Below are positions 9,246 to 26,764 of a stretch of DNA of 64,000 bases, piece by piece. Each line of letters opens with the position of its first letter. The first letter of the stretch is position 1. This stretch comes from Desulfospira joergensenii DSM 10085 (lineage in GTDB: Bacteria > Desulfobacterota > Desulfobacteria > Desulfobacterales > Desulfobacteraceae): NCBI RefSeq assembly GCF_000420085.1, contig NZ_ATUG01000002.1, forward strand, positions 868,001 to 932,000, given 5' to 3'. The translations under genes were made by a program, and so were the position numbers. The notes under the pieces were generated by a model, which saw nothing but the letters and a program-made list of their open reading frames with translations, searched no databases and had not been told where the DNA came from.

Positions 9246-11782
9246 TTGAGAAAAAGGCCATTCAATCCATTGACTGGAAGATCCTTGTCATCGATGATGA
9301 GGAGGATATCCGCCAGGTGATTTCCATTGTGCTTTCCGATGCAGGGTTTGAGGTTTCAACGGCCAGCGACGGTGAGACCGGTATCCAAATCGCCGGGGAG
9401 TGGTCTCCCCAGATCGTTCTGACAGACATCCGGATGCCCAAAATGGACGGGATCCAGGTGCTGGAAATTTTAAAAAAAGAGTGTCCGGATACAGAGGTGA
9501 TCGTCCTGACCGCCTTTGGAGAGATGGAACAGGCGGTCCGGGCCCTGGATCTGGATGCCTCGGATTATATTACCAAGCCGGTGAGCGACGATGTGCTTTT
9601 CATCGCTTTGAAACGGGCCCAGCACCGGTATCTGTCCCGGCGGCAGAGCCGGGCCTATGAATTGGAAAATAGTGCCAAAAAACTCCAAAAGGGGGTTTCC
9701 TCCGGCAGCACCGGTACGGTCGCCCGGGACCTTGTCCAGGGGGCCATTGACGGAGCCCTGGCCTGTGATGAAAATGAAACCATCATCTCCATAAATCATA
9801 TTATGGCCCGGATGCTGGGACGGTCCGAACAGGAGATCGTCAACCGGATGCAGCTGGCCGATATATTTTCCCCGGACCGGAAACAGAAACTGGAAAAGGT
9901 TTTGTATCACAAGGATTACGGTTGGGAAAAGAGGATCTCCCTCCATGAAACCAGCATCCTGGACCCCTCCGGTAACAGCATCCCGGTACAGATGTCCGTG
10001 AGCCTTTTAACGGACAACGGGAATAAACTGGGGATGATCTGTTTTTTCCGGGACCTGAGAAAGCAGATGATTCTCTGTGATCAATGGGTGGAGATGCTGG
10101 ATCAGATCAATATCGGCGCCTTTACCATTGATGCCGGCCGGCATATCACGGCCTTTAATGCCAGTGTCCAGGCCATGACCGGCCTCAAGGAGTCTGATGT
10201 GCTGGGCAAGGACTGCCGGGAGGTCTTTTCCAATATCCACTGCCATGCCAGGTGCCCCTTTCATGTGGAGAGTGAACAGGGAGATGATGAGCTCTGTGTG
10301 GAAATCAGGGACCAGGAAGATGCAAAGCATCTGATCACCCGTCTTTCAACCCCCCTTTACGGTCCGGGAAACAGGGTTACGGGCTGCGTGACCATTCTCC
10401 AGGACCATGCCGCCCTGGCAGATTTGATCAACCGGGTCAACACCAAGGAACGAAGTCTGAAGACGGTATTGGACAACCTGGATATCGGTATATTCACCGT
10501 GAACCGGGGCGGGTATACCACTTTTTTCAATACAGCCGCAGAACTGATCTCCGGATACAACCGCCGCCAGGTTCTGGGAAGGCCCTGTTCGGTTATTTTC
10601 GGGGAGGCCAACACCACTGAACCGGAGCGGTTAAGGGAATCCATGACCCTGGGGGAATCCAGGGTTAATAACGAGGCTGAGATCGTCACCCCCCAGGGGG
10701 AAATCGTCCCTGTACGGGCAAATTATATCCCCCTGCACAGCGACCAGGGAAAGATCATCGGCTGCATCGCCACCCTCCAGGACCTGACCCTGTCCCATCA
10801 GTATAAGCAGGTGGTCAACAACCGGTATACCTTTCATTCCATGATCGGTAAAGATCCCCTGATGCAGAAGATATTCAAGACCGTTGAGGTGGTGGCCAAA
10901 ACCGATGCCACCATTCTGATAGAGGGGGATACCGGTACCGGAAAAGACCTTCTGGCAAAGATCGTCCATTCGGCCAGCAAGCGGGCTGATAAACCCCTGG
11001 TCAAGGTCAATTGCGCGGCTCTGCCGGAAAACCTCCTGGAGTCGGAGCTTTTCGGCTATGTCAAAGGCGCTTTTACCGGGGCGGACAGGGACAAGCCCGG
11101 CCGGTTCCAGGAGGCAGACCAGGGAACCATTTTTTTGGATGAAATCGGTGACCTTCCCCTCTCCCTCCAGGCCAAATTCCTCCGGGTCCTGGAGGACAAG
11201 GAGTTCTATCCCCTGGGCAGCCGGAAGACCCGGAAAGTGGATGTCCGCATCATCTCGGCCACCAACCAGGGTTTGGAAAACCAGGTAAAGGCCCGTCGAT
11301 TCCGTCAGGATCTCTTTTACCGCCTCAACGTCATGCATCTGGAACTGCCTCCCCTGAACCAAAGAAGGGACGATATCCCCTTGATCATCCGCCATATCTT
11401 AAGAAAACTCTGCAGCGCCAGGGCCATCCCCTCCCATGAGATTTCAAAGACGGCCATGCACATGCTCTTGAATTACGATTATCCCGGCAATGTAAGGGAA
11501 CTTCAGAATATTCTGGAACATGCCCTGATCGTATGCCAGGAAAACATCATCGAACCGGACCACCTCCCCCTCTCCCTGCAGAACCGGTTTCAACGGACCT
11601 CTGATGAAAAGGCCGGTGAGACCGTGCCCCGGTCCAGGGATCTGAATTCCGGGGACCGGGAGGCGATTTTAAAGATGCTGCGACGGTACGGCTGGCATAA
11701 GACCAAAACTGCCAAAGCCCTGGGCATGGACCGGACCACGCTCTGGCGGAAGATGAAAGCCCTGGGCATTCAACCCCGGTAA
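9242..11782 (+). CDS. Sigma-54-dependent response regulator (receiver, PAS repeats, AAA+, Fis-type HTH)
   Basis: This 846-residue enhancer-binding protein has a receiver at about 13-130 (acceptor D62 in VLTDIRMPKMDG) and three PAS-like segments (about 160-280, 285-400 and 405-525); the second has a Cys-rich IHCHARCPF stretch. The AAA+ domain (about 535-770) has Walker A GDTGTGKD near 562, GAFTGA near 610 for sigma-54 contact, and Walker B IFLDEIGDLP. The C-terminal Fis helix-turn-helix (TKTAKALGMDRTTLWRKMK) reaches the last residue. It would open sigma-54 promoters on phosphorylation or PAS ligand binding. A likely target lies immediately downstream: inverted repeats at 11804-11916 and a -24/-12 element at 11998. 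It is translationally coupled to the upstream kinase. Confidence 0.93.
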   Translation: MIEKKAIQSIDWKILVIDDEEDIRQVISIVLSDAGFEVSTASDGETGIQIAGEWSPQIVLTDIRMPKMDGIQVLEILKKECPDTEVIVLTAFGEMEQAVRALDLDASDYITKPVSDDVLFIALKRAQHRYLSRRQSRAYELENSAKKLQKGVSSGSTGTVARDLVQGAIDGALACDENETIISINHIMARMLGRSEQEIVNRMQLADIFSPDRKQKLEKVLYHKDYGWEKRISLHETSILDPSGNSIPVQMSVSLLTDNGNKLGMICFFRDLRKQMILCDQWVEMLDQINIGAFTIDAGRHITAFNASVQAMTGLKESDVLGKDCREVFSNIHCHARCPFHVESEQGDDELCVEIRDQEDAKHLITRLSTPLYGPGNRVTGCVTILQDHAALADLINRVNTKERSLKTVLDNLDIGIFTVNRGGYTTFFNTAAELISGYNRRQVLGRPCSVIFGEANTTEPERLRESMTLGESRVNNEAEIVTPQGEIVPVRANYIPLHSDQGKIIGCIATLQDLTLSHQYKQVVNNRYTFHSMIGKDPLMQKIFKTVEVVAKTDATILIEGDTGTGKDLLAKIVHSASKRADKPLVKVNCAALPENLLESELFGYVKGAFTGADRDKPGRFQEADQGTIFLDEIGDLPLSLQAKFLRVLEDKEFYPLGSRKTRKVDVRIISATNQGLENQVKARRFRQDLFYRLNVMHLELPPLNQRRDDIPLIIRHILRKLCSARAIPSHEISKTAMHMLLNYDYPGNVRELQNILEHALIVCQENIIEPDHLPLSLQNRFQRTSDEKAGETVPRSRDLNSGDREAILKMLRRYGWHKTKTAKALGMDRTTLWRKMKALGIQPR

Positions 11783-12075: not shown

Positions 12076-12504
12076 TTGGTTAAGAAGGAAAAAAGGCCCA
12101 AGATACTGGTGGTGGACGATGATCCGGATATGCGGATTTTTTTTTCAGCCCTTCTCAAAACCGGCGGGTTTCACCCCATTGTTGCCGGAAACGGAAAAGA
12201 GGGACTGGACAAGGTCAAGAAAGAAAATCCCGCCTTCATCATCATTGACGTGCCCATGCCGGACAACGGCGGCATGCAGATGTACCGGTGTCTGAAGCAG
12301 GATAAAACCCTTTGCTGCATCCCCGTCATCATGGTGTCCACCATTGACCAGCAGACCTTCACCCACTACCAGAAGACAAAGGGAGTCCGCCTGGGTCATG
12401 ATATCAGCGGTCCGGAAGCCTTCCTGGAAAAGCCGCCGGAAGCGGCAGAGGTCCTCGACCTGATAAGGGAAACCCTGACAAGGAGTATGTCCCCAAATGG
12501 ATAA
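12076..12504 (+). CDS. Stand-alone receiver-domain protein (CheY-like)
   Basis: These 142 residues are a single receiver domain with acidic residues D14-D16, acceptor D58 in FIIIDVPMPDN and K119 in FLEKPPE. It has an extra loop before the lysine (about 95-115) and no output domain. The start is TTG at 12076, preceded by AAGGGGAG at short spacing. A 10-codon frame starting at ATG 12051 ends at 12083, across this start, and could couple translation. The gene overlaps the next one by eight bases and is the first cistron behind the sigma-54 promoter candidate. It may shuttle phosphoryl groups between the local kinases and the receiver inside the tandem HdrA, or bind the redox complex itself; that role is inferred. 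Confidence 0.85.
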   Translation: MVKKEKRPKILVVDDDPDMRIFFSALLKTGGFHPIVAGNGKEGLDKVKKENPAFIIIDVPMPDNGGMQMYRCLKQDKTLCCIPVIMVSTIDQQTFTHYQKTKGVRLGHDISGPEAFLEKPPEAAEVLDLIRETLTRSMSPNG

Positions 12505-14860
12505 AATCTCAAAAAATCAAGAACAGACCGATCAAGACCGGATCAGTCCATTATTGGCAAAGCCTTTAAACGGCGTCGATCCGGATTTTCACCGGGAAAT
12601 CTCCCGGTTCGGGGCACAGGATATGGAGATCTGCATGCAGTGCGGGAACTGCAGTGCATCCTGCCCCCTGTCCCAGGGGGATGACACCTTCCCGAGAAAA
12701 GTATACCGCTACATTCAACTGGGGTTAAAGGACAAGCTCCTGGCCTCCCCGGTGCCCTGGCTCTGCTATTATTGCGGGGAGTGCAATAAGGACTGCCCCA
12801 GGGGGGCGGAACCGGCGGAAACCATGATGGCTGCCCGGCGCTGGCTGACCAGCCAGTACGACTGGACAGGACTTGCAAAGCGGCTCTACCTTTCCGAGGC
12901 ATGGGAAATGGGTGCCTTAGGGCTGCTGGCCCTGGGGATTATTCTGCTCTTTGTCTTTTTCCACGGTCCCATTATCACGGACCGGGTGGCGGTCAATACC
13001 TTTGCCCCGGTCATGTGGATCGAGATCGGGGATCTGACCATGGCCGCTGTTTTGACCCTTTTTCTGCTTTCCAATGCATTCAGGATGTACCGGTTTATCA
13101 TGGCAGGCACAAAGATACCGATCCATCTCTATTTTACAGAGGCAAAATCCTTTTTGATTCACTTTGCCACCCAGAAACGGTGGAGAAAATGCGGTGAGGA
13201 CAAAACCCGGTGGGTCAAGCATTTTATCCTGGTGACGGGATATATGACCATGATGACCCTGATCATCGTTTTCATCCGCTGGTTCCAGGTGGATGACAGC
13301 TCCTGGCATTTCTCCAGTCTTTTCGGCTACTATGCCACAGGGGTCCTGCTCTATCTGACCGTGGACATGTTCATGAGCCGCCTGAAAAAGAAAGAGGATC
13401 TTCACCGGTTTTCCCAGTCCACGGACTGGCTTTTCCTGGTGCTTCTCTTTTTCACCACCCTGACCGGGATCCTCATGCACCTGGTCCGGCTGGCCGGCTG
13501 GCCCATGGGCACCTATGTCATGTACGTCATCCACCTTGCCATTGCCGTGCCCATGCTGGTCATTGAGGTGCCCTTTGGGAAGTGGTCCCATCTCTTTTAC
13601 CGGCCCCTGGCCATCTTTCTCACCCGGGTCCGGGAAAAGGCCGACCGGGAAAGCCCGGTCAAAGCAGAGACCGTGGAAAAGGCCCTGGATCAGACCTTTA
13701 TGGAGTGCATGCAGTGCGGCACCTGTTCCGGGGTCTGTCCCTTGGGCCGGATTCTTTCCTTCAGCCCCAGAAATATCCTGCGCCGCATTACCCGGGACAC
13801 GGCCACCCTGGAGACCGTTGACCGCCCGGCCTGGCAGTGCCTGACCTGTGCCGCATGCACAAGCGCCTGCCCCAGGGGAATCGATATCATTGAGGTCATG
13901 AAGACTGTCCGCCAGTTCACCCTCAAGGAAAAGGGTCGGCCGGAACATGCAGAACCGGTGCTGAACAGTCTCCGCCGGCAGGGAAATCCCTGGAACGGTT
14001 CATCGGAAGGGCGTATGGCCTGGGCGGGAGATCTGGACATCCCGGCCTTTAAACCGGGACTTGAGTATTGTCTTTTCTCCTGCTGCACCACAGCCTATGC
14101 CAGGGGCGGGGGGCCGGCGGATAAAACCGCCGAGGCCGCCCGCATGCTGGTCCGGCTCCTGGCAGGCACCGGCATTTCCCTGGGCACCCTGGGGGCGGAC
14201 CAGGTCTGCTGCGGTGATCCGGCATCGGCCCTGGGAGATGAGTCCCTGTTCTCGGAACTGAAGAAAAAGAACAGCCGCCTGTTTTTAAACAACAGGGTTG
14301 AAAAGATTCTGACCCTTTCCCCCCACTGCTTTCATACGCTTGGCCGTTTTTATCCCCAGCTAAAGGGCAGGGTGGCCATTGAGCATTATGTTGAACTTCT
14401 TGACCGGCTCATCACAGCCAAACGGATTCTTCCCTTCCGGGAACTGGACCGGGTCGTCACCTATCACGATCCCTGCTACCTGGGACGGCACAGCGGGATC
14501 TTCGAACCCCCCCGCAGGATTTTAAAGGCGATCCCGGGGCTCACCCTGGTCGAGATGCCCGGCAACCGGGAAAAAAGCATGTGCTGCGGGGGCGGGGGAG
14601 GCAATGCCTTTGTCTCCTGTCCCCGGGAGGAATCCCTCGGAATTCAGCGGGTGGGGGAGGCATTGGCATCCGGGGCGGATATTCTGGCCACGGCGTGTCC
14701 CTTCTGCATCCGCATGCTCAATGATGCCGTTCAGGAACTTCAGGCCGGCAATCTTCTGGAGGTCATGGATGTGGCCCAGCTCCTATATAAGTCCGCAGGA
14801 ATCAAACCGGGTATAAAAGCCACTGCAGAAACCAAGGCAGTGATGCATCAGGAGGACTAA
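12497..14860 (+). CDS. Membrane Fe-S protein: HdrC-like, six-helix cytochrome-b-like, Fe-S and two CCG domains
   Basis: This 787-residue protein has four parts. First come two N-terminal 4Fe-4S motifs (C47-x2-C-x2-C-x3-CP57 and C90-x2-C-x2-C-x3-CP100). About six membrane helices follow between residues 130 and 370, resembling the QmoC/HdrE/NarI-type quinone-reactive module. A second 4Fe-4S pair (CMQCGTCSGVCPL near 402 and CLTCAACTSACPRG) comes next. Last are two CCG-type cysteine domains (SCCTTAYA...VCCGDP, then CCGGGGGNAF and ACPFC) as in HdrB/HdrD, where they bind the non-cubane catalytic cluster. It joins HdrC, HdrE and HdrD functions in one chain and probably links a membrane quinone to a thiol/disulfide or redox partner. 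AAGGAG precedes the ATG; the stop lies two bases before the HdrA start. Substrate unknown. Confidence 0.85.
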   Translation: MDKISKNQEQTDQDRISPLLAKPLNGVDPDFHREISRFGAQDMEICMQCGNCSASCPLSQGDDTFPRKVYRYIQLGLKDKLLASPVPWLCYYCGECNKDCPRGAEPAETMMAARRWLTSQYDWTGLAKRLYLSEAWEMGALGLLALGIILLFVFFHGPIITDRVAVNTFAPVMWIEIGDLTMAAVLTLFLLSNAFRMYRFIMAGTKIPIHLYFTEAKSFLIHFATQKRWRKCGEDKTRWVKHFILVTGYMTMMTLIIVFIRWFQVDDSSWHFSSLFGYYATGVLLYLTVDMFMSRLKKKEDLHRFSQSTDWLFLVLLFFTTLTGILMHLVRLAGWPMGTYVMYVIHLAIAVPMLVIEVPFGKWSHLFYRPLAIFLTRVREKADRESPVKAETVEKALDQTFMECMQCGTCSGVCPLGRILSFSPRNILRRITRDTATLETVDRPAWQCLTCAACTSACPRGIDIIEVMKTVRQFTLKEKGRPEHAEPVLNSLRRQGNPWNGSSEGRMAWAGDLDIPAFKPGLEYCLFSCCTTAYARGGGPADKTAEAARMLVRLLAGTGISLGTLGADQVCCGDPASALGDESLFSELKKKNSRLFLNNRVEKILTLSPHCFHTLGRFYPQLKGRVAIEHYVELLDRLITAKRILPFRELDRVVTYHDPCYLGRHSGIFEPPRRILKAIPGLTLVEMPGNREKSMCCGGGGGNAFVSCPREESLGIQRVGEALASGADILATACPFCIRMLNDAVQELQAGNLLEVMDVAQLLYKSAGIKPGIKATAETKAVMHQED

Positions 14861-14861
14861 G

Positions 14862-17800
14862 ATGGCTGAGAGAATCGGATTTTATATTTGCCACTGCGGG
14901 ATCAATATCGCATACCGTGTCAGGGTGGAGGAGGTGGCCCAGTATATCTCCACCCTGCCCAATGTGAAGGTTTCCCGGGATTATCTTTTCATGTGTTCCG
15001 ATCCGGGCCAAGAGCTTATTGAAAAAGATATCAAGGCCCATGATCTGACCCGGGTCATTGTGGCATCCTGCTCCCCGAGGATGCACGAGAAAACCTTCCG
15101 CCAGGCCTGTCAGAGGGCCGGGCTCAATCCTTTTAAGGCCTTTCACATGGTCAGCGTCCGGGAACAGGTCTCCTGGGTGACCGAAGACGAGGACGAGGCC
15201 ACCCAAAAGGCAAAGATCCTGGCTAGTGCCGGGGTGGCCCGGGTGATCCACCAGCAGGCCCTTACCCCGGCCACCTTTCCGGTCTGTACCAATACCCTGG
15301 TGGTGGGGGGGGGGATCGCCGGTATGCAGGCTTCCCTCGACATTGCCAGCGCCGGGTTCACGGCCTTTCTGGTGGAGCGGCAGCCCACCATCGGCGGCCA
15401 TATGCTCCAGTATGACAAGACCTTTCCCACATTGGACTGTGCCGCCTGCATCGGCACCCCCAAGATGGTGTCCGTGGGCCAGGAGCCCAATATCGAACTG
15501 CTGTCCCATAGTGAAATTGTTGATGTCAGCGGTTTCATCGGCAATTTCAAGGTAGAGGTCAATAAAAAGGCCCGGCACGTGGAAGACAACTGCACCGGAT
15601 GCGGGGAGTGTGAAAAGGTCTGCCCGGTGACCATGGCCAATGAATGGGATGTGGGAACCAAACTTCGGAAGGCCATATACCGGCCCTTTCCCCAGGCCGT
15701 GCCCATTACCTATTGCATTGACAAATTTGACCGGGCCCCCTGCGTCAATACCTGCCCGGCCGGCACCAATGTCCAGGGATACGTGGCCCTGGTTAAGGTG
15801 GGGGAGTATGAGAAAGCCCTGAAGCTGATCATGGAAAAAATCCCTTTGCCCGGCACCCTGGGCCGGGTCTGCCCGGCCCCCTGCGAGACGGCCTGCCGCA
15901 GGGCCGATGTGGACAGCCCGGTGGCCATCCGGGAACTGAAACGCTTTGCCGCAGACCAGGTGGATCATGGGACTCTTTCCATCCCGGATATTGAGGAGAA
16001 ATCCCAGAAGATCGCCATTGTGGGATCCGGCCCCGCCGGACTGACCGCGGCCTATTACCTGCGCCTGAAGGGATACCAGATCACCCTCTTTGAAGCCCTG
16101 GATCACCTGGGCGGCATGCTCCGGGTGGGGATCCCGGATTACCGCCTGCCCCAGGAGATCCTGGACAGGGAAATCGGCTATATCCTCAGGCACGGCATTG
16201 AGGTGAGGACCGGCAGGCGACTGGGTTTGGATTTTAGCCTGGACGACCTTGAGACCGAGGGCTTCTCCGCCGTTTTCCTGGGTCCGGGCGCCCACCTCTC
16301 CCTGCAATTGCAGATCCCCGGGGAAGAGAACAGCACCGGGGTTGTGGATGCCGTTGAGCTGCTGCACCGGATCAACCTGGGGGAACGGACCGCCCCGGGC
16401 ACCCGGGCCGCAGTCATCGGCGGGGGCAATGTGGCCATTGATGCGGCAAGGTCTGTGAAGCGCCTGGGTGCTGAAAAGGTGGTGGTGGTCTACCGGAGAT
16501 CGGAACAGGAAATGCCGGCCTATGAAGAAGAGATAGAGGGGGCCAGGGAGGAAGACATTGAGTTTTTATTTCTGACCGCCCCTGTGGCTGTCCAGGCGGA
16601 AAACGGCAAGGTGACAGGACTTGAATGCATTGAAACGGAACTGGGGCCGGCCGATGAGAGCGGCCGAAGGAGGCCGGTTCCCAAGGAAGGATCCGAGTTT
16701 GTCATCTCCTGTGATACGGTGATTCCGGCCATCGGCCAGAAAATCGATACGGTTTTTGCAGACAAGGCCCCCGGTCTGGAGCTCACCGCCGGAAACCGGG
16801 TCCGGGTCAATCCCATCACCTTTCAGACCAGCCTGCCCCATGTGTTTGCGGCCGGGGATGCCGTGACAGGACCCGCCACGGTCATTGAAGCCGTGGCCGC
16901 TGGCCATAAGGCCGTGGCCTCCATTGAATGCTTTCTGGAAGGCCGGGACATTGAGGCATTGGAAGAAGAAGCGTACCAGGCCCCGGCTCCGGGAAATGAG
17001 TGGAAAAAGATCCCGGATAAAACCGAGGCCGTTCCCAGGGCGGTTGCCGACCTTCTGGATCCGATCCAGCGGGCCGTCACCTTTGACGAGGTGGATCAGA
17101 ACTTTAACGAGGCCGCTGCCCAAACCGAGGCTGCCCGGTGCGTCGACTGCGGAGGGTGCTGCGAATGCCGGCTCTGCGTGGACGCCTGTGAGGCAAAGGC
17201 CGTGAACCATGAAATGAGGGATGTCACCGAGACCATAGAGGTGGGGTCCATTATCGTGGCCACGGGGTTTGATCCCCTGGATCCCTCTCCCATGGAACAG
17301 TACGGGTACGGAAGGCTGGCCAATGTCTTTACCAATCTGGAGTTTGAACGCCTCTCCAATGCCACGGGCCCCACCTCCGGGAAGCTGCTCAAACGGGACC
17401 CCCATGACCGGCTCAAGTTCACGGAGCCGCCCAAAAGCGTTGCCATTCTTCACTGCATCGGCAGCCGGGACATCAACTTCCATGAGTACTGCTCAAGAAC
17501 CTGCTGCATGTATGCCCTCAAGTATGCCCATCTGCTCAAGGACAAATGCGGCCATGATACCCAGGTGTACAACTTCTACATCGACATGCGCTGTTTCGGC
17601 AAAGGGTATGAAGAATTTTATCAGCGGGTCCAGGGCGAGGGTGTCCGCATGATCCGAGGCAAGGCCGCAAGGGTGGAGGAGAACAACGGCATGCTCCAGG
17701 TCTTTGCCGAGGACACCCTCTCCGGCAGCATGGTGAATATATCCGTTGAAATGGTCATCCTGTGTACGGCAATGGAACCCAGGGCCGATGTCAATTCCGT

Positions 17801-18242
17801 GGCCCGCACCTTTGGCATTGCCACCGGCGGCGACGGTTTCTTCCTGGAACAGCATCCCAAGCTGGAACCGGTGTCCACCGCTTCCGCCGGGGTCTTCCTG
17901 GCCGGTGCCTGCCAGGGGCCCAAGGATATCCCGGATACGGTGGCCCAGGCAAAGGGGGCTGCGGCCGAAGCCCTGGCCCTGAGCAGCAAGGGAGAGGTTT
18001 CCGTGGCACCCATGATCTCCTTTATCGATCCGGATGTCTGCGTGGGATGCCAGATCTGCATCGGGCTGTGCCCCTATTCGGCCATTGAGTTTAATGACCG
18101 GCTCCAGGTCAGCGAGGTCAACGAGGCGGTATGCAAGGGTTGCGGGTCCTGCTCGGGCTATTGCCCCAGCGGCGCGGCCAAGGTAAAGCATTTTACGGAT
18201 AAACAGGTGTTTTCTGAAATTGACGGACTGCTGGCCGGGTAA
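14862..18242 (+). CDS. hdrA: HdrA-type flavoprotein with inserted GltD/NfnB-like NAD(P)H oxidoreductase module
   Basis: This 1126-residue cytosolic iron-sulfur flavoprotein begins with the HdrA N-terminal domain (YICHCGINI, VASCSPRMHE), then the FAD motif VVGGGIAGMQASLD (about 147-160) and a Cys motif C193-x2-C196. A 4Fe-4S site lies at 244-254. Residues about 285-715 form a complete GltD-like unit: CVNTCPAGTNVQGY and CPAPCETACRR cluster ligands, the FAD motif IVGSGPAGLTAAYYL, and the pyridine-nucleotide motif VIGGGNVAIDAARS. HdrA then resumes (RCVDCGGCCECRLCVDAC, IIVATGFDP, CSRTCCMYALK), ending in two 4Fe-4S motifs at about 1060-1105. The NADPH module could replace separate FlxAB-type subunits. 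GGAGGA lies five bases before the start. It is probably the bifurcating subunit of the complex encoded here. Confidence 0.9.
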   Translation: MAERIGFYICHCGINIAYRVRVEEVAQYISTLPNVKVSRDYLFMCSDPGQELIEKDIKAHDLTRVIVASCSPRMHEKTFRQACQRAGLNPFKAFHMVSVREQVSWVTEDEDEATQKAKILASAGVARVIHQQALTPATFPVCTNTLVVGGGIAGMQASLDIASAGFTAFLVERQPTIGGHMLQYDKTFPTLDCAACIGTPKMVSVGQEPNIELLSHSEIVDVSGFIGNFKVEVNKKARHVEDNCTGCGECEKVCPVTMANEWDVGTKLRKAIYRPFPQAVPITYCIDKFDRAPCVNTCPAGTNVQGYVALVKVGEYEKALKLIMEKIPLPGTLGRVCPAPCETACRRADVDSPVAIRELKRFAADQVDHGTLSIPDIEEKSQKIAIVGSGPAGLTAAYYLRLKGYQITLFEALDHLGGMLRVGIPDYRLPQEILDREIGYILRHGIEVRTGRRLGLDFSLDDLETEGFSAVFLGPGAHLSLQLQIPGEENSTGVVDAVELLHRINLGERTAPGTRAAVIGGGNVAIDAARSVKRLGAEKVVVVYRRSEQEMPAYEEEIEGAREEDIEFLFLTAPVAVQAENGKVTGLECIETELGPADESGRRRPVPKEGSEFVISCDTVIPAIGQKIDTVFADKAPGLELTAGNRVRVNPITFQTSLPHVFAAGDAVTGPATVIEAVAAGHKAVASIECFLEGRDIEALEEEAYQAPAPGNEWKKIPDKTEAVPRAVADLLDPIQRAVTFDEVDQNFNEAAAQTEAARCVDCGGCCECRLCVDACEAKAVNHEMRDVTETIEVGSIIVATGFDPLDPSPMEQYGYGRLANVFTNLEFERLSNATGPTSGKLLKRDPHDRLKFTEPPKSVAILHCIGSRDINFHEYCSRTCCMYALKYAHLLKDKCGHDTQVYNFYIDMRCFGKGYEEFYQRVQGEGVRMIRGKAARVEENNGMLQVFAEDTLSGSMVNISVEMVILCTAMEPRADVNSVARTFGIATGGDGFFLEQHPKLEPVSTASAGVFLAGACQGPKDIPDTVAQAKGAAAEALALSSKGEVSVAPMISFIDPDVCVGCQICIGLCPYSAIEFNDRLQVSEVNEAVCKGCGSCSGYCPSGAAKVKHFTDKQVFSEIDGLLAG

Positions 18243-18291: not shown

Positions 18292-18714
18292 ATGGAAGAG
18301 TTCGAACCCACGATTATCGCGTTTTTTTGTAATTGGTGCACCTATACGGCGGCGGACCTGGCAGGCACCTCCCGTCTGTCCTATCCGCCCAATATCAAGA
18401 TCGTGAGGATGATGTGTACAGGCATGGTGGATCCCAAGTACATTATAAAAGCCCTTCTCCAGGGGGCGGACGGCGTTCTGGTGAGCGGATGCCACCCCGG
18501 GGACTGCCATTATATCAACGGGAACTTCAAGGCCAGGCGAAGGATCAAACTATTGAAGGCGGTTCTTGATCCGTTCGGCCTGGAAAAGGAACGGGTCCGG
18601 CTCACCTGGATCGGGGCCAGCGACGGCCACAAGCTGTCCGAGACCATCAACGAGATGGTGGCCCAGGTCAAGGCCCTGGGGCCCATAGAAACCAAAAAGA
18701 CCATGGTCATTTAA
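18292..18714 (+). CDS. MvhD/FlxD-like iron-sulfur subunit
   Basis: These 140 residues match the MvhD family (delta subunit of methyl-viologen-reducing hydrogenase, also found as FlxD). This small 2Fe-2S protein hands electrons to HdrA. Conserved cysteines are visible in FFCNWCTYTAAD, RMMCTGMVDP and SGCHPGDCHY. No hydrogenase large or small subunit lies nearby, so electrons should come from the FrhB-like flavoprotein or the NADPH module rather than from hydrogen. GGGAGG precedes the ATG. It sits between the two HdrA genes in one operon, 17 bases upstream of the next gene. Confidence 0.9.
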   Translation: MEEFEPTIIAFFCNWCTYTAADLAGTSRLSYPPNIKIVRMMCTGMVDPKYIIKALLQGADGVLVSGCHPGDCHYINGNFKARRRIKLLKAVLDPFGLEKERVRLTWIGASDGHKLSETINEMVAQVKALGPIETKKTMVI

Positions 18715-19903: not shown

Positions 19904-22900
19904 ATGAGGAAAAAAATCGGAACCGCCATGGTCCTGGGGGCCGGGATCAGCGGAATTCGCACCGCCCTTGATCTGGCTGAATTCGGGTACCGGGTCACCC
20001 TTGTGGACAAGGCGCCCCATATGGGCGGGATCTTAAGCCAGCTGGACTACCAGTTTCCCAATGACGGATGCGGCATGTGCAAGATGCTTCCCCTGGTGGA
20101 CCGGGATGCCGCTTCCAATTTCTGCCTGCGCAGGGGTCTTTTCCATGAAAATATCGACATTGTCCTGGGCGCGACCCTTAAATCCCTTGCCGGGGAACCG
20201 GGAAATTTTGAGGTTGTCCTGGAGCAGAAGCCCACAGGGGTGGATCCTGATCTATGCATCGGCTGCGAAGCCTGCACCCAGGTCTGCCCGGTGGAGGTGG
20301 CGGACAGCTTCAATTTAGGGCTTGCCAGCCGAAAGGCCATTTACCTGCCCGTTCCCCACAATATTCCCAACACCTATGCCATTGATTTTCCCAATTGCAC
20401 CCGGTGCGGGGAGTGTGTTCAGGCCTGTCCCACGGGAGCCATTCGCCTTCCCGAAGAAAGACGGAAAAATTTTCATATCCTGGTGGTGGACGACGAACTG
20501 ATTGTCCGGGACTCCCTAAAAGAGTGGCTGGCAGACGAAGGCTTTTCCGTGGACATGGCCGAGTCAGGAGAGAAGGCCCTTGGGATGCTTGGGGAAAAGG
20601 AATTTCATCTCATGCTCACGGACATTAAAATGCCGGGCATGGACGGGGTGGAGCTTTTAAAAGAGGCAAGGGGTCTGTATCCGGACCTGACCATTGTCAT
20701 GATGACCGCATATGCCACGGTGGAAACAGCGGTTTCCGCCATGAAGCAGGGAGCCCTGGACTACCTGTTAAAGCCCTTTGACCCCCAGACATTCACTCCC
20801 AGGATCCTGGAGATCTACCAGACCCTTGACGTGGTGGAGGAAAAGGAACTGAGGGTCAACGCCCTGGTGTTGAGTACGGGCACCCAGTACTTTGACCCCA
20901 AAGACTCCACAAATACCTTTGGATACGGAGTTTACCCGGACGTGGTCACGGCAAGGGAATTTGAACGTATCCTGAGCGGTACCGGCCCCAGCCAGGGACA
21001 ATTGCTGCGCCAGTCAGACCAGAAGGAAGTAAAAAAAATTGCCTGGTTCCAATGCGTGGGGTCCAGGGATCTTCAGACGGATTCGGATTTCTGTTCCTCG
21101 GTCTGCTGCATGCATGCCCTTAAGGAGGCCCGCCTGGTCAAGGAAAAATTCGGCCCGGACGTGGAAACCACTATTTTCTATATGGATCTGAGGACCTTTG
21201 GAAAGTCCTTTTTTCAATACCAGCAGGAAGCGCAGATGGATTACGGCATTCAATTTGAAAAAAGCCGGGTCCATTCCGTGATTGAAAACCGGGAAAAGGG
21301 CGGCCTCCAGGTCCGGTACCTGGACCCGGCCGGCCGGCGTCAAGAGGCCCGGTACGATATGATCGTGCTGTCCACCGGGCAGCGACCTTCTGCCGGTACG
21401 GCCCGTCTGGCCGATATCGCCGGACTTTCCCTTAATCCCTGGGGGTTTCTGGAGTCCCTGCCCTTTTCCGGGGGGCGGTCCAATGTCGAGGGGATATTCC
21501 TGGGTGGATCCGCCACCGGCCTGAAGGACATCGGGGAATCTGTGATTGAGGCAGGTTCTGCCGCCCTTTGTGCCTCCCGGTTTATCCATTCTTCAGGGGG
21601 CAGCCTGTCAGAGGAAAGCGAAGCCCTGCCAGTTTACAGGAATGTGGCCCGGGAGCTGCCCCGGATTCTGGTCATGGCCTGTACCTGCGGAGGCGAAAAA
21701 TGCCCGGACCCGGCCGCTCTGGAAAAGGAACTGACCACAGATCCGGCAGTCAAGGAAGTGGTGTTCCTGGACAAGGCCTGCACCCGACAGGGCTGGGAAG
21801 AACTTATATCCGTGGCTGTGGAAAGTGATGCCAACCGCATCCTCATCGGGGCCTGTCTTCCCTATGCCTTTACCTCCAAGGTCAAGGACCTTGCCGTGAA
21901 AAAAGGACTCCACCCCGGCCTCATTGATCTGGTGGATATCCGTTCCCCTGGTTCTTCCGGGCCGGATGAATCCCGTCCGGACCTGAAGACGGCTGAAATC
22001 CTGAAAACCGGGTTTTCCCGGCTCAAACGCCTGGATCCGCCGGACCCGCCCGTGGCATCCTCCGTTCAAAAGGCCCTGGTTGTGGGTGGTGGTATCGGCG
22101 GCATGACCGCCGCCCTGGCCGTCGCCGACCACGGGTTTGAAGTGGATCTTATTGAAAAGGAGGCCGCCCTGGGGGGCAATCTGACCTGGCTTCAGAAGAC
22201 CATTGACGGCCAGGATATCCCCTTGCTTTTGGAACAGACCCTGGAAAAAATTGAAAATCATCCCCGGATCAGCGTTCATCCCCATACCCTGGTGGCTGAC
22301 TCTCTGGGCTGTGCCGGTCATTTCATTACCACCCTGGAGGGCAGGGAGGACAAGAGTCTGACGACCCTCACCCACGGGGCCGTCATCCTGGCAACCGGGG
22401 GAAAAGCGCCTTCCACCAACTCGTTTGCATACGGGCAGGGTCCCGGGATCCTTACCCATAAGGAATTGGAGCAGGGCCTTGCCGAGGGAAGCCTCAAGCC
22501 CGAAGAGATCTCCTCCGTGGTCATGATCCAATGTGTGGATTCAAGGGATGCGGAGACAAAAAACTATTGCAGCCGTATCTGCTGCACTTCCACATTGAAA
22601 CACGCCCTGGACCTGAAAGAGGCAAACCCGGATATGGCCGTCTATGTGTTTTACAGGGACATGATGGCCTATGGATTTTTTGAGACCTATTATACCCGGG
22701 CAAGACAGGCCGGGGTCCTCTTTATCCGGTATGATCCGGACCGCCGGCCCGAGGTTTCGGCAGATCCTTCCCAGGTGGTGGTGAAGGCCTTTGAACCTGT
22801 CATCGGCCGGGATATTGAGATCAGTGCAGACCTGCTGGTGCTGGCCACGGGCGTATCCCCAGTGCTGCCGGAAAACCTGGTGAAAAGTTTCGGGGCCGGG

Positions 22901-23314
22901 ATAGATTCATTTGGATTTTTCGAGGCAGCCGAGTCCAAATGGCGGCCCGTGGACTCCCTCAAGGAAGGGGTGTTTGCCTGCGGTCTCTGCCATTCCCCCA
23001 GGAATATTGCGGAAACCGTTGCCAGCGCTCAGAGTGCGGCCCAGCGGGCACTGCGCCTTCTGGGGGACTCCAGGATCCGTACCGGATCCCTGGTCTCCCG
23101 GGTGCGTCACAGCCTGTGCAGTCTCTGCCAGCGCTGCATCGACACCTGCCCCTACGGGGCCCGGACCCTGGATCCCGACGGCAGGCAGATAAACGTCAAC
23201 CCGGTCATGTGCCAGGGATGCGGGGACTGTGCCACGGTCTGCCCCAACAATGCCTCGGTTCTGGCCGGGTTCAAGGATGAGCAGGTCTTTGATCTGATGG
23301 ATTCCTTTTTTTAG
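19904..23314 (+). CDS. hdrA: Tandem HdrA-HdrA flavoprotein with an inserted receiver (CheY-like) domain
   Basis: This 1136-residue cytosolic protein contains two HdrA units. Unit 1 has FAD motif LGAGISGIRTALDL (11-24), C56-x2-C59, and 4Fe-4S sites at 118-128 and 165-175. Residues about 189-305 are a full receiver: ILVVDDE with D196/D197, LMLTDIKMPGMDG with acceptor D240, T268 in MMTAY and K290 in LLKPFD. HdrA sequence then resumes at about 318 (NALVLSTGTQYFDP) through CSSVCCMHALKEA. Unit 2 (about 587-1136) repeats the HdrA N-terminal domain, FAD motif VVGGGIGGMTAAL (726-738), CSRICCTSTLKHA and a terminal pair of 4Fe-4S motifs (CSLCQRCIDTCP, CQGCGDCATVCP). It should carry two FADs and several clusters. 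All key receiver residues are intact, so phosphorylation could gate electron flow. AGGAGG precedes the start; a receiver-kinase gene follows 20 bases downstream. Confidence 0.92.
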   Translation: MRKKIGTAMVLGAGISGIRTALDLAEFGYRVTLVDKAPHMGGILSQLDYQFPNDGCGMCKMLPLVDRDAASNFCLRRGLFHENIDIVLGATLKSLAGEPGNFEVVLEQKPTGVDPDLCIGCEACTQVCPVEVADSFNLGLASRKAIYLPVPHNIPNTYAIDFPNCTRCGECVQACPTGAIRLPEERRKNFHILVVDDELIVRDSLKEWLADEGFSVDMAESGEKALGMLGEKEFHLMLTDIKMPGMDGVELLKEARGLYPDLTIVMMTAYATVETAVSAMKQGALDYLLKPFDPQTFTPRILEIYQTLDVVEEKELRVNALVLSTGTQYFDPKDSTNTFGYGVYPDVVTAREFERILSGTGPSQGQLLRQSDQKEVKKIAWFQCVGSRDLQTDSDFCSSVCCMHALKEARLVKEKFGPDVETTIFYMDLRTFGKSFFQYQQEAQMDYGIQFEKSRVHSVIENREKGGLQVRYLDPAGRRQEARYDMIVLSTGQRPSAGTARLADIAGLSLNPWGFLESLPFSGGRSNVEGIFLGGSATGLKDIGESVIEAGSAALCASRFIHSSGGSLSEESEALPVYRNVARELPRILVMACTCGGEKCPDPAALEKELTTDPAVKEVVFLDKACTRQGWEELISVAVESDANRILIGACLPYAFTSKVKDLAVKKGLHPGLIDLVDIRSPGSSGPDESRPDLKTAEILKTGFSRLKRLDPPDPPVASSVQKALVVGGGIGGMTAALAVADHGFEVDLIEKEAALGGNLTWLQKTIDGQDIPLLLEQTLEKIENHPRISVHPHTLVADSLGCAGHFITTLEGREDKSLTTLTHGAVILATGGKAPSTNSFAYGQGPGILTHKELEQGLAEGSLKPEEISSVVMIQCVDSRDAETKNYCSRICCTSTLKHALDLKEANPDMAVYVFYRDMMAYGFFETYYTRARQAGVLFIRYDPDRRPEVSADPSQVVVKAFEPVIGRDIEISADLLVLATGVSPVLPENLVKSFGAGIDSFGFFEAAESKWRPVDSLKEGVFACGLCHSPRNIAETVASAQSAAQRALRLLGDSRIRTGSLVSRVRHSLCSLCQRCIDTCPYGARTLDPDGRQINVNPVMCQGCGDCATVCPNNASVLAGFKDEQVFDLMDSFF

Positions 23315-23334: not shown

Positions 23335-24483
23335 ATGGAACAGAAAAGAATGACCGCACAGGATTTAAATCAGATCCTCATCGTGGATGATGAAGAAGAT
23401 ATCCGGGATGTGCTTGCCATTTCCCTGGCCGACATGGGGTATGAGGTCCTGGAGGCGGAAAACGGCGAAGCGGCCATGGCCCTGTTCCGGGAAAAAAATC
23501 CCATGATCGTGCTCACGGATATCAAGATGCCGGGAATGGACGGCATTGAGATCCTGAAAAAGATCAAATCTGAAAATCCCTATGCCCAGGTGATCATGAT
23601 CACAGGACACGGGGACACGGATATCGCCATCAGGAGCCTCAAGCATGAAGCCATTGATTTCATCACAAAGCCCATCAGCGGTCAGGCCCTGGAGATCTCC
23701 CTGAAACGGGCCAGGGAAAAGATCATCACCCGCCGGCAGCTGAACGCCTACACGGAAAGCCTGGAGGAGTTGATCCGGGAAAAGACCATGCTCCAGGACA
23801 ACCTGGCAAACCTGGGGGTGATGATCGGGTCCATCTCCCACAGTGTAAAGGGACTGCTTACCAAACTGGACGGCGCCCTTTACCTGATCGACTCGGCCCT
23901 GAAAAAAGAGGATCCGGATCAGCTGGCAGACGGTATGGACATCCTCAAACAGACCATTGACCGGATCAAAAAGATGATCTTTGATATCCTCTACTATTCA
24001 AAGGAACGGGAATTAAAGATCGAATCCATTGACCTGGTAAAATTTGCCAATGATGTGGCAGATACCTGTGAACCCAAGGCCGCACCCAATAAAGTCCGGA
24101 TCGAACGGGACTTTGAAGATGGGGCCGGCAGGTTCAAAGCAGACCCTGAACACATGCGGGCAGCCCTGATCAATATCCTTGACAATGCCGTGGATGCCTG
24201 CATAGAGGACAGATCGGAAAAGGATCATTCCATAGAGTTCCGGGCGGCCAAGGACAAGGAAGAGATCGTCTTTGAGATCCGGGACAACGGCATTGGTATG
24301 GATCCCGAGACCCGGGAAAAGGTCTTTAACCTGTTTTTTTCATCCAAGCAGAACAAGGGAACCGGGTTCGGCCTTTTTATCACCAAGAATATCATCCGGC
24401 AGCACGGAGGCAGTATCCATTTAAAATCCGCAAAGGGCAAGGGCACCTGCATCCATATCAGGGTCCCCCTCTGTCCTGCCTGA
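23335..24483 (+). CDS. Cytosolic receiver-histidine kinase (REC-HisKA-HATPase)
   Basis: These 382 residues have an N-terminal receiver (DD18-19, D62 in VLTDIKMPGMDG, K112 in FITKPIS), a helical linker, and a dimerisation region with the putative phospho-accepting H169 in IGSISHSVKGLL. A HATPase_c domain follows (ILDNAVDAC, FEIRDNGIGMD, GTGFGLFITKNII). The H-box lacks the usual acidic residue after His and the Pro, so it is divergent though recognisable. No membrane or PAS segment is present. It lies 20 bases after the receiver-containing HdrA and is probably the last gene of that operon, a natural candidate to phosphorylate that receiver or to sense the complex. Its 3' end overlaps the convergent sensor kinase by 26 bases. 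Confidence 0.88.
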   Translation: MEQKRMTAQDLNQILIVDDEEDIRDVLAISLADMGYEVLEAENGEAAMALFREKNPMIVLTDIKMPGMDGIEILKKIKSENPYAQVIMITGHGDTDIAIRSLKHEAIDFITKPISGQALEISLKRAREKIITRRQLNAYTESLEELIREKTMLQDNLANLGVMIGSISHSVKGLLTKLDGALYLIDSALKKEDPDQLADGMDILKQTIDRIKKMIFDILYYSKERELKIESIDLVKFANDVADTCEPKAAPNKVRIERDFEDGAGRFKADPEHMRAALINILDNAVDACIEDRSEKDHSIEFRAAKDKEEIVFEIRDNGIGMDPETREKVFNLFFSSKQNKGTGFGLFITKNIIRQHGGSIHLKSAKGKGTCIHIRVPLCPA

Positions 24484-26764
24484 AAAGTCCGTTCTCCTTT
24501 CTGGAAAAGGGGAAACGGATGGTAAAGCAGGTCCCTCTGGTTTCAGTATCCATGGAGACTCCGATATCGCCCTTGCACTCCTTGATAATTCCGTAGCTGA
24601 TGGAAAGCCCGATTCCTGTACCCTTTCCCACTTCCTTGGTGGTGAAAAAGGGCTCGAATATCTTTTCCCGGATGGCGTCACTGATTCCGATGCCCGTATC
24701 AATCACTTTTACGATTACATGTTCTTTTCCTGCCAGGGTCTGGAGGATGATTTTTTCATTATCTATTTTTCCGCCAATTTTTTGGTTCTTTTCCTCGATG
24801 GCATCCCTTGCATTGACCAGAAGATTGATGAACACCTGTTCCAGGCGGCCCGGATCCGCCGTGACTTCCGGGATGTTTTCCATTACCTGCCAGACCACCT
24901 CAATTCCCCTCACCTTGAGCTGCTGGCTGAAGATGTCATGGGCCCTTTTTAAAATCTCGTTCACGTTGACCGGTTCAAAGTTGATGTCGGATTTCCGGGC
25001 AAAATGACGCATGTGCTCGATGATCTTTGAGGCCCGGTCCACATTGGTGTTGATCTTTGACAAAAGCTTTTGGTGGATTTCTTCTTCGAGTTTTTCCTCC
25101 TGCCGGATTTTTTTCAGGATAAAATCACTGGCCGTCTTGATCACGGAAAGGGGCTGGTTCAGCTCATGGGCAATGCCCGTGGACATCTCCCCCAGGGTGG
25201 CCATTTTCCCGGCCTGGATCAGGTCCTGCTCAGTTTCCAGCCGTTTGGTGATGTCGCTGGTGGTGACCAGCAGTACTTTTTTATCGCTGAACTCCGAAGG
25301 GGATATCCAGATATCCACAAACAGGGTTTTTCCCTCTTTGTTTTTCTGTCTGACCTGGTTTAAGATCGACGAGGTCTTTATCAGCCGTTTCATCTGGTCT
25401 TTTTCTTCTTCCATGAAAAAGTCTGTAAGGGATCTTCCAAGGATCTCCTCTTTTTGAAATCCGTAGACAGACTCCACACTCTGGTTACAGTCGATCAAGT
25501 CCAGGGAGTCTTTATCCAGGACAAAAACCGGATTGGGGATGTTGTTGAATATGGACTGGTATTTTTTCTCGGAAGCCTCCAGCTGTTTTTCCAGCTTTTT
25601 TCTCTGGGTGATGTTCAGGCTCATTTCAATGGCGGACACCACTTCGCCTTTGGCGTTTTTGATGGGAGAGGTGATAAAGATCCAATAATGCCGGGTACCG
25701 TCTTTTCCAATGCCCGATTCTTCCCCGGAATGGGACTTTCCGTCCTGGAAAGTCTTTTCAACCGGGCAGTTGTCACATTTTAGGTCCCTTCCCTTGTAGG
25801 CCTGAAAACAGTGGGAGCCGGGTTGGGGATCAAAACTCTCCAGAAACTGCCGGTTGTACCGCAGCAATTTGAAATTTCTGTCCTGGACACTGATCATGCA
25901 GGGGGCATCGTCAAAAAGGGTTCTGTACTCATCCCGCTGGGCATGGAGTTCGTTCTGGTGGATGCGGATCTGGCGGCCCATACTGTTTATGGCTTCGGCC
26001 AGCTGCCCCAGTTCATCTTTCTGGCCCAGGTCGACCTCGTTTTCAAATTCTCCTCCGGCAATGCGGACCGTGCCCTGGATCAGTTTCTGGATGGGAACGT
26101 GGATAAACCGGTGGACAAAGAGAAAGATGATGATGGACATGACCAGAAATCCCATTATTGCCAGGCTGATGATGCCGTTCTTTGCATTCTTGATGGCTTT
26201 ATCCGGTATTTCAAGGGAAACCACCACATCCAGGGCACCCAGTATCTTCTTGTTCGGGGGATGAAAATGACAGCTTTCAGTGGAACATCCCGGTTCATTG
26301 TAAATGGGGGTGATAATCCCCAGGAGGCGGTAGCCTTCGGTCGATCTGAAAATCCGGATCCTCTGCTCCAGGTCGAGATGGATCAGGGGAGGATCGGTTC
26401 TATGGCAGATATCGCAGGCCTCGTCTTTGATCAGGGTCTGTTTATGCTTCTCCATGGGAATATTGGAAAAGGTGATTTCCCCGGCTTTATTGTAGATGTG
26501 GATCTTTTCAATGGCCTGCTGCTTTCCGATATTCTGAATGATCTGGGTGATGTCGTCCCTGGAGTTGAGGGTCATGGCATAGTGGGTTCCCAGCCGGATG
26601 GTTTCCGTGAGCCGGTTGGTATCCGTGATGATATGCTTCATCAGCTTCTGGTTCTGAAAGTTGATGTTGAAATAGGCCCAGGCGGCAATGATCAGCAACA
26701 GGGGAAAGCCGATGAATATAATCAGTTTGGAAACGATATTCATGCGAAGTATTGCCTTTCCCAT
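24458..26764 (-). CDS. Membrane sensor histidine kinase with CxxCH/Cx4CH outer domain and two PAS domains
   Basis: This 768-residue kinase has a membrane helix at 14-33 and an outer domain of about 165 residues holding C117-x2-C-H121 and C160-x4-C-H166, followed by HFHPP. CxxCH is the covalent c-haem attachment motif, and similar sensor domains occur in deltaproteobacterial kinases and chemoreceptors, so redox or gas sensing through haem c is plausible. A second helix (197-217), HAMP (218-270) and two PAS domains (about 280-400 with CDNCP, and 410-515) follow. The HisKA box is STGIAHELNQPLSVIK, and HATPase_c ends at GTGIGLSISYGII. It is convergent with, and overlaps, the receiver-kinase ending the Hdr operon. 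No cognate regulator is adjacent, so one of the local receivers may be its target. An ATG eight codons in is an alternative start. Confidence 0.88.
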   Translation of the reverse strand: MGKAILRMNIVSKLIIFIGFPLLLIIAAWAYFNINFQNQKLMKHIITDTNRLTETIRLGTHYAMTLNSRDDITQIIQNIGKQQAIEKIHIYNKAGEITFSNIPMEKHKQTLIKDEACDICHRTDPPLIHLDLEQRIRIFRSTEGYRLLGIITPIYNEPGCSTESCHFHPPNKKILGALDVVVSLEIPDKAIKNAKNGIISLAIMGFLVMSIIIFLFVHRFIHVPIQKLIQGTVRIAGGEFENEVDLGQKDELGQLAEAINSMGRQIRIHQNELHAQRDEYRTLFDDAPCMISVQDRNFKLLRYNRQFLESFDPQPGSHCFQAYKGRDLKCDNCPVEKTFQDGKSHSGEESGIGKDGTRHYWIFITSPIKNAKGEVVSAIEMSLNITQRKKLEKQLEASEKKYQSIFNNIPNPVFVLDKDSLDLIDCNQSVESVYGFQKEEILGRSLTDFFMEEEKDQMKRLIKTSSILNQVRQKNKEGKTLFVDIWISPSEFSDKKVLLVTTSDITKRLETEQDLIQAGKMATLGEMSTGIAHELNQPLSVIKTASDFILKKIRQEEKLEEEIHQKLLSKINTNVDRASKIIEHMRHFARKSDINFEPVNVNEILKRAHDIFSQQLKVRGIEVVWQVMENIPEVTADPGRLEQVFINLLVNARDAIEEKNQKIGGKIDNEKIILQTLAGKEHVIVKVIDTGIGISDAIREKIFEPFFTTKEVGKGTGIGLSISYGIIKECKGDIGVSMDTETRGTCFTIRFPFSRKENGLFRQDRGGP

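What the first reader, a model, noticed from the sequence alone, without database searches (positions are those of the whole stretch)
19904..23314. A complete receiver domain inserted inside a tandem HdrA flavoprotein
Residues about 189-305 (20468-20818) of this 1136-residue double HdrA form an intact CheY-like receiver: D196/D197, D240, T268 and K290 are all present. It sits between the second 4Fe-4S motif and the next FAD-domain strand of the first HdrA unit. The same chain holds a second full HdrA. Direct phospho-control of an electron-bifurcating flavoprotein would join two-component signalling to energy metabolism without transcription. I know of no described HdrA regulated this way, but I cannot search.
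Basis: partly seen in the sequence, partly recalled or inferred. Interest (0 to 1): 0.92.

Follow-up and report, generated by a model that had tools for sequence, protein, structure and literature searches.

The report
Signal-receiver domain built into electron-splitting flavoprotein
A sulfate-reducer-type bacterium and dozens of its relatives carry an intact two-component signal-receiver domain inside a core electron-transfer flavoprotein (HdrA), usually beside dedicated sensor kinases, which suggests that signalling could throttle energy metabolism directly; nobody appears to have described or tested this.

Summary
Residues 191-309 of the 1136-residue HdrA-like protein (19904-23314) form a complete CheY/NtrC-type receiver, placed where solved HdrA has only four residues, directly after the inserted 2[4Fe-4S] ferredoxin. 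It is a family trait: 85 of 241 sampled genomes of the class carry the same architecture. Of 72 aligned receivers, all keep D196, D197, T268, Y287 and K290, and 71 keep D240. The gene lies in a conserved operon (NAD(P)H-type HdrA fusion, MvhD, FrhB-like, HdrBC or HdrF) with up to three histidine kinases. The most constant is a membrane kinase with invariant periplasmic c-heme motifs (in the window 24458-26764, minus strand), a likelier partner than the REC-kinase at 23335. Orthologous operons without the receiver usually lack the kinases. One lineage with no such heme kinase in its genome has a degenerate receiver. Relatives of the receiver sit inside tandem Usp proteins beside the same kinases. 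Best reading: a phosphorylatable control insert on a redox complex. Phosphotransfer and effect on electron flow are untested. The second HdrA unit is not a full copy; it lacks the ferredoxin insert. New variant of a known kind.

The parts
19904..23314 (+). Tandem HdrA-like flavoprotein with internal receiver (1136 aa)
   Evidence: ORF; Pfam; HdrA fold: model residues 5-565 on 8rwn_A Z 29.8, rmsd 1.7 A over 421; 584-1136 on 7bkd_A Z 32.5, rmsd 3.2 A over 550
20474..20830 (+). Receiver domain, residues 191-309; D240 codon 20621-20623
   Evidence: Pfam 103.6 bits, AF2 topology, 72 aligned receivers
20234..20449 (+). Inserted 2[4Fe-4S] ferredoxin of HdrA unit 1, residues about 111-182, immediately before the receiver
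   Evidence: Pfam Fer4; alignment to HdrA 5odc; cysteines invariant in 52 homologues
24458..26764 (-). Membrane sensor kinase (type C4): periplasmic Cache-like domain with CxxCH and Cx4CH motifs, HAMP, two PAS, HisKA, HATPase_c
   Evidence: Pfam; heme motifs invariant in 30 aligned homologues; AF2 + Foldseek hit WalK and heme sensor GSU0935; linked to receiver-HdrA in 38 of 53 loci
23335..24483 (+). Receiver-histidine kinase (REC 14-120, H-box around ISHSVKG, HATPase_c 270-379)
   Evidence: Pfam; orthologue in 30 of 53 receiver-HdrA loci
7704..9245 (+). REC-PAS-HisKA-HATPase kinase
   Evidence: Pfam; homologues sit beside Usp-receiver-Usp genes
9242..11782 (+). NtrC-type sigma-54 activator with REC and PAS domains
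   Evidence: Pfam
12076..12504 (+). Stand-alone divergent receiver (142 aa)
   Evidence: Pfam Response_reg 55.2 bits, profile positions 1-83; conserved in the operon
12497..14860 (+). HdrF-like membrane subunit (QmoC-like + HdrC/HdrB-like)
   Evidence: NCBIfam below cut-off: QmoC 220 bits, HdrC; Pfam Fer4 and CCG
14862..18242 (+). GltD/NAD(P)H-oxidoreductase-HdrA fusion (HdrL-like)
   Evidence: Pfam and NCBIfam
18292..18714 (+). MvhD/FlpD
   Evidence: PF02662, 183 bits
18731..19885 (+). FrhB/FdhB-C-like iron-sulfur protein
   Evidence: PF04432 and Fer4; gene upstream of receiver-HdrA in most relatives

Best explanation
The insert is a working response-regulator receiver that makes part of an Hdr-type electron-transfer complex directly responsive to a two-component system. 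Shown by computation: an intact, strongly conserved receiver fold grafted behind the ferredoxin insert of HdrA unit 1, within a conserved operon that also encodes an NAD(P)H-type HdrA, MvhD, HdrBC or HdrF and, in most relatives, a c-heme sensor kinase, a receiver-kinase and/or a REC-PAS kinase. Inferred: the heme kinase (or the receiver-kinase or REC-PAS kinase) phosphorylates D240. Inferred: phosphorylation moves the T268/Y287 switch and the alpha4-beta5-alpha5 face, which changes the position of the neighbouring ferredoxin arm or the docking of a partner and so alters electron flow to or from low-potential carriers. The signal would be the redox state, or a gas, at the periplasmic heme; the NtrC-type regulator would act on transcription in parallel.
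For: Fold and insertion site. Catalytic residues in 72 receivers: D196, D197, E198, T268, Y287, K290 in 72 of 72, D240 in 71 of 72. Linked kinases in 43 of 53 receiver-containing loci of 12 kb or more against 2 of 16 receiver-less orthologous operons (Fisher p 1e-6, not corrected for kinship); both exceptions carry a stand-alone receiver gene near the kinase. The window's nearest receiver-less relatives (L115, L120) fall beside it inside receiver-bearing proteins (support 0.99), so the receiver was lost there, and their operon lacks the heme kinase and receiver-kinase. L146/L147 have a degenerate receiver (D197P, T268A, K290H) and no such heme kinase anywhere in their genomes. In Desulfotignum-type genomes the ferredoxin insert is gone but the receiver stays intact, so it is not a passenger of the ferredoxin. 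The same receiver clade inside tandem Usp proteins, without any Hdr gene nearby, sits beside the same kinase types (L141, L142). Solved HdrA conformers differ strongly on the same model (8rvy 3.4 A against 8rvu 8.1 A; 7bkd 3.2 A against 7bkb 7.9 A), so HdrA has large domain motion to act on.
Against: No biochemistry. No inter-domain error estimate or complex model was available, so docking of the receiver is not established. The heme-kinase family also occurs elsewhere in genomes without receiver-HdrA (G008, G022, G009, G029, G077, G193), next to Tmc-like redox genes in several of them (Tmc likeness recalled, not tested), so it is not dedicated to HdrA. Ten of 53 receiver-bearing loci show no kinase of the three types nearby. 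Bifurcation by this tandem HdrA is assumed from homology.
Confidence: 0.5

Rival explanations
1. Reverse direction: the Hdr complex is the sensor. The receiver in HdrA exchanges phosphate with the kinases at a rate set by the flavin/Fe-S redox state, so it reports electron pressure to the NtrC regulator through the phosphorelay.
For: The operon holds several receivers and kinases and an NtrC-type activator, as a relay would need. Putting the receiver next to the redox cofactors would suit sensing.
Against: The heme kinase already carries its own periplasmic sensor. The closest relatives of the receiver sit inside Usp proteins, which have no redox cofactor known to me. Where NtrC remains but the receiver is lost (L115, L120), the kinases next to HdrA are gone.
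Confidence: 0.2
2. Docking or localisation: the receiver recruits the complex to a partner (kinase, Usp, membrane subunit) by phosphorylation-dependent binding, without changing catalysis.
For: Many single-domain receivers act by binding (established knowledge). The HdrA body superposes undisturbed on both sides of the receiver (8rwn, 1.7 A over 421 residues).
Against: No partner identified. The position directly behind the ferredoxin insert favours an effect on electron flow, though weakly.
Confidence: 0.18
3. Structural passenger: the domain is a stable spacer without signalling function.
For: Degenerate receivers exist in one lineage (L146, L147) and some orthologues do without it.
Against: Near-total conservation of the phosphorylation site in 72 sequences, retention when the ferredoxin insert is lost, and linkage to kinases.
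Confidence: 0.07

Closest known systems
HdrA of HdrABC-MvhAGD and related methanogen complexes (5odc, 8rvu, 7bkb)
   Same: Thioredoxin-reductase-like FAD domain with ferredoxin insert, N-terminal domain and C-terminal ferredoxin all present across the tandem protein; MvhD and HdrBC/HdrF genes adjacent
   Different: Tandem with complementary domain content; 129-residue receiver after the ferredoxin insert; kinases in the operon; scores below the NCBIfam HdrA and HdrA2 cut-offs
HdrA/HdrL/HdrF sets of Desulfobacterium autotrophicum HRM2 and Desulfococcus multivorans (PMC2702500, PMC5109826)
   Same: HdrL-type fusion + MvhD + HdrF or HdrBC gene sets; the HRM2 figure legend lists response-regulator, kinase and CheY-like genes near hdr loci
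   Different: The passages read describe no receiver inside an HdrA; figures and supplements could not be read
NtrC-family receiver domains and response regulators with enzymatic output
   Same: Receiver fold and all catalytic residues; nearest sequence models are AtoC, ZraR, FixJ, NtrC
   Different: Inserted inside a redox flavoprotein instead of preceding a DNA-binding or cyclic-nucleotide output domain
sCache_heme / Tll0287-like c-heme sensors (PMC12889525; GSU0935, 3b42)
   Same: Periplasmic Cache-like fold with a CxxCH helix inserted between strands, followed by HAMP
   Different: A second invariant Cx4CH motif; Pfam Mcp40H-20_sensor stays below its cut-off (at best 25.8 against 27)
Usp-receiver-Usp proteins of the same lineages (L030, L102, L105)
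   Same: Same receiver clade, 67-73% identical to the window's receiver, same kinase types next door
   Different: Host protein is a tandem universal stress protein; no flavin or Fe-S domain

Membership tests
CheY/NtrC-type receiver (Response_reg, PF00072) | Profile match above curated cut-off | tested here: met
   103.6 bits against 30.2
CheY/NtrC-type receiver (Response_reg, PF00072) | Acidic pair, phospho-acceptor Asp, Thr/Ser and Lys | tested here: met
   D196/D197, D240, T268, K290; conserved in 72 (D240 in 71) of 72 aligned receivers
CheY/NtrC-type receiver (Response_reg, PF00072) | (beta-alpha)5 fold | tested here: met
   (Z 22.2 to 3crn)
CheY/NtrC-type receiver (Response_reg, PF00072) | Phosphorylation by a histidine kinase | not testable with these tools
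   Needs purified proteins
HdrA | TrxR-like FAD domain with inserted 2[4Fe-4S] ferredoxin | tested here: met
   Unit 1: alignment to 5odc 145-517 around the insert, 8rwn Z 29.8
HdrA | N-terminal domain and C-terminal ferredoxin | tested here: met
   Present in the unit 2 half: 584-799 to 5odc 2-222, 1005-1136 to 517-650
HdrA | NCBIfam cut-offs (HdrA 1400, HdrA2 1100 bits) | tested here: not met
   540 and 653 bits: HdrA-like, not a canonical HdrA by NCBI's rule
HdrA | Electron bifurcation with ferredoxin | not testable with these tools
   Inferred from homology only
sCache_heme sensor kinase (for the gene at 24458-26764) | Cache-type fold with covalent c-heme motif CxxCH | tested here: inconclusive
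   CxxCH invariant in 30 sequences; Foldseek hits WalK and GSU0935; Pfam match below cut-off; heme binding untested

The most novel reading that the evidence does not exclude
A redox-sensing (c-heme) phosphorelay gates an electron-bifurcating flavoenzyme complex directly, through a receiver inserted beside its ferredoxin arm. The same receiver module also serves as an internal switch of tandem Usp proteins: a transplantable phospho-switch cassette for energy metabolism.
Probability: 0.4. Interest if true: 0.9.

Novelty: new variant of a known kind. Interest (0 to 1): 0.75.

Why it matters
Electron bifurcation is normally thought of as controlled by substrate levels, redox poise and gene expression (general knowledge). 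A phospho-receiver built into an Hdr flavoprotein, kept intact across a large group of mostly sulfate-reducing bacteria and tied to a heme-sensor kinase, would be a direct, fast, non-transcriptional control on the low-potential electron budget of these organisms. It makes a question testable: can a two-component signal change the direction or coupling of an Hdr complex within seconds? The receiver-less, ferredoxin-less and degenerate relatives are natural controls.

Tried and rejected
Assembly artefact or chance fusion: rejected. Pseudo-receiver: rejected for the window protein; a true pseudo-receiver exists in L146/L147. The kinase at 23335 as sole partner: rejected as the default, because heme kinases are more constant neighbours (38 against 30 of 53 loci) and loci L056, L060, L079 carry only a soluble version of that kinase of about 385 residues. 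Strict genome-level pairing of heme kinase and receiver-HdrA: rejected, since genomes without receiver-HdrA also have the kinase; only operon-level linkage holds. A first automatic classification of receiver presence by regular expression mislabelled several loci and was replaced by BLAST against the receiver; L039, still listed there as receiver-less, is a receiver-bearing gene split by a frameshift. A sigma-54 -24/-12 site near the operon: none found with one mismatch. Literature on HdrA + receiver: nothing beyond hdr loci with regulators nearby; the D. toluolica Tol2 genome paper was not found here and the Pereira 2011 review is not held. Position of the receiver relative to FAD/Fe-S in space: not obtained, no coordinates or error matrix were available. 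VIA-align rows cover mainly residues 189-310 and 720-1059, so absence of other folds there means nothing.

Full report
CHECK OF THE OBSERVATION. The ORF 19904-23314 encodes 1136 residues without interruption. Pfam places Response_reg at 192-298 with 103.6 bits. An AlphaFold2 model built on an alignment of 52 sequences (pLDDT 86, pTM 0.86) shows five alternating strands and helices at 191-309, which superpose on solved receivers at 1.1-1.8 A. D196/D197, D240, T268, Y287 and K290 occupy the canonical places. Sequence alignment to HdrA of Methanothermococcus (5odc) gives four blocks: 7-185 to 145-313, 315-515 to 318-517, 584-799 to 2-222 and 1005-1136 to 517-650. The receiver therefore replaces four residues just behind the inserted ferredoxin, and the HdrA body on both sides is undisturbed (8rwn, 421 residues at 1.7 A). 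The protein is a tandem with shared-out domains: unit 1 has FAD domain, ferredoxin insert and receiver; unit 2 has N-terminal domain, FAD domain and C-terminal ferredoxin. 'A second full HdrA' is thus slightly overstated.

HOW WIDE. The full span ferredoxin-receiver-HdrA matches in 85 of 241 genomes sampled from the class (my count from the match table), plus four with an ORF of about 970 residues in which the ferredoxin insert is missing and the receiver kept (compare). In a sample of 395 genomes of the phylum 14 match; two of these have degenerate receivers. Named carriers are mostly Desulfobacterales, Desulfobacteraceae and Syntrophobacteraceae assemblies, including a complete Desulfonema magnum chromosome.

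CONSTRAINT ON THE RECEIVER. In 72 aligned HdrA receivers D196, D197, E198, T268, Y287, K290 and P291 are invariant and D240 is present in 71. Seven Usp-borne receivers of the same clade keep every one of these residues.

THE OPERON. Clustering of ORFs in about 70 loci gives a repeated order: divergent stand-alone receiver, (HdrF-like), NAD(P)H-type HdrA fusion, MvhD, FrhB-like, receiver-HdrA, (HdrC, HdrB), membrane kinase 'C4', receiver-kinase; often preceded by a REC-PAS kinase and an NtrC-type activator. The window has HdrF in place of HdrBC, and its C4 kinase is inverted (24458-26764, minus). C4 has a periplasmic Cache-like domain with invariant CxxCH and Cx4CH motifs in 30 sequences, HAMP, two PAS and a kinase core; its model resembles WalK and the heme sensor GSU0935. 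A preprint on c-heme Cache sensors reports NO binding for a HAMP-linked member and redox-like behaviour for a stand-alone one (PMC12889525). The input could therefore be redox or gas; this is inference.

NATURAL EXPERIMENTS. Orthologous operons with HdrA lacking the receiver exist. One of the three kinase types lies in the locus in 43 of 53 receiver-bearing loci and in 2 of 16 receiver-less ones; both exceptions (L116, L118) have a stand-alone receiver gene in the stretch before C4. Loci are related by descent, so the p value is only a guide. In a tree of the HdrA body without the insert the receiver-less pair L115/L120 is sister to the window protein with support 0.99, well inside receiver-bearing sequences: a secondary loss, with the C4 and receiver-kinase genes absent from the operon while the NtrC gene remains. 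The deeper history (one gain and several losses, or several gains) is not resolved because the root is weakly supported. L146/L147 hold a degenerate receiver (D197P, T268A, K290H), none of the operon kinases and no C4 match in the whole genome. Desulfotignum-type sequences lost the ferredoxin insert but kept an intact receiver. Against strict pairing: several receiver-less genomes do have C4 kinases elsewhere, near genes that look like a Tmc redox complex (the Tmc reading is from memory and gene sizes only).

A MOVABLE RECEIVER. Receivers inserted between two Usp domains (Pfam) are 67-73% identical to the window's receiver and nest inside the HdrA receivers in the tree (support for the joint clade 0.81). 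They lie next to REC-PAS and C4-type kinases both inside the Hdr operon (L144) and, in closed genomes, without any Hdr gene nearby (L141, L142). One reading is that the same kinases address both host proteins.

MECHANISM. Shown: intact receiver, placement, constraint, linkage. Inferred: phosphorylation of D240 by an operon kinase; a switch through T268/Y287; movement or docking of the neighbouring ferredoxin arm. Solved HdrA takes different states: the same model fits one Elp-Hdr state at 3.4 A and the other at 8.1 A. I give 0.85 that the receiver is phosphorylated in cells, 0.7 that the donor is among the three linked kinase types, and 0.55 that the effect is on electron flow or complex conformation; about 0.5 for the explanation as stated, since these steps are not independent.

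KNOWN OR NEW. No text found describes an HdrA with an internal receiver. HdrA, receivers and heme Cache kinases are each known; the combination and the implied direct control are new. The protein does not reach NCBI's HdrA or HdrA2 cut-offs and should be called HdrA-like.

Noticed in passing
L030:946-2343; L102; L105; L141; L142; L144: Usp-receiver-Usp proteins: a receiver inserted between two universal-stress-protein domains, closely related to the HdrA receiver and next to the same kinase types, in some closed genomes without any Hdr gene nearby.
   Followed up: partly
L146:8041-11586 and L147:8698-12234 (both read after reverse-complementing the locus): HdrA with a degenerate receiver (D197P, T268A, K290H) in a separate family of the phylum; these genomes have no match to the heme kinase.
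   Followed up: partly
L125 (10516-13464), L126 (9327-12212), L106, L107, L109: Receiver directly occupies the ferredoxin-insert slot: the 2[4Fe-4S] insert of HdrA unit 1 is missing while the receiver is intact.
   Followed up: partly
L152, L153, L154, L155, L156: The heme kinase + receiver-kinase pair (receiver-kinase divergent in some) also follows genes resembling a Tmc-type membrane redox complex (CCG protein, small membrane protein, small CxxCH protein), suggesting a general signalling module of respiratory complexes.
   Followed up: partly
window 24458-26764 (-), motifs at residues 117-121 and 160-166: Periplasmic sensor with a canonical CxxCH and an unusual Cx4CH heme motif, both invariant in 30 homologues; possibly a di-heme Cache sensor.
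   Followed up: partly
window 12076-12504: Stand-alone divergent receiver, conserved near the start of the operon, with Ser in place of the switch Thr and a long stretch before the Lys; role unknown.
   Followed up: no
G000 genome: The genome has at least 150 receiver domains and ten further HdrA-like matches; no other HdrA with a receiver showed up in the searches done.
   Followed up: no
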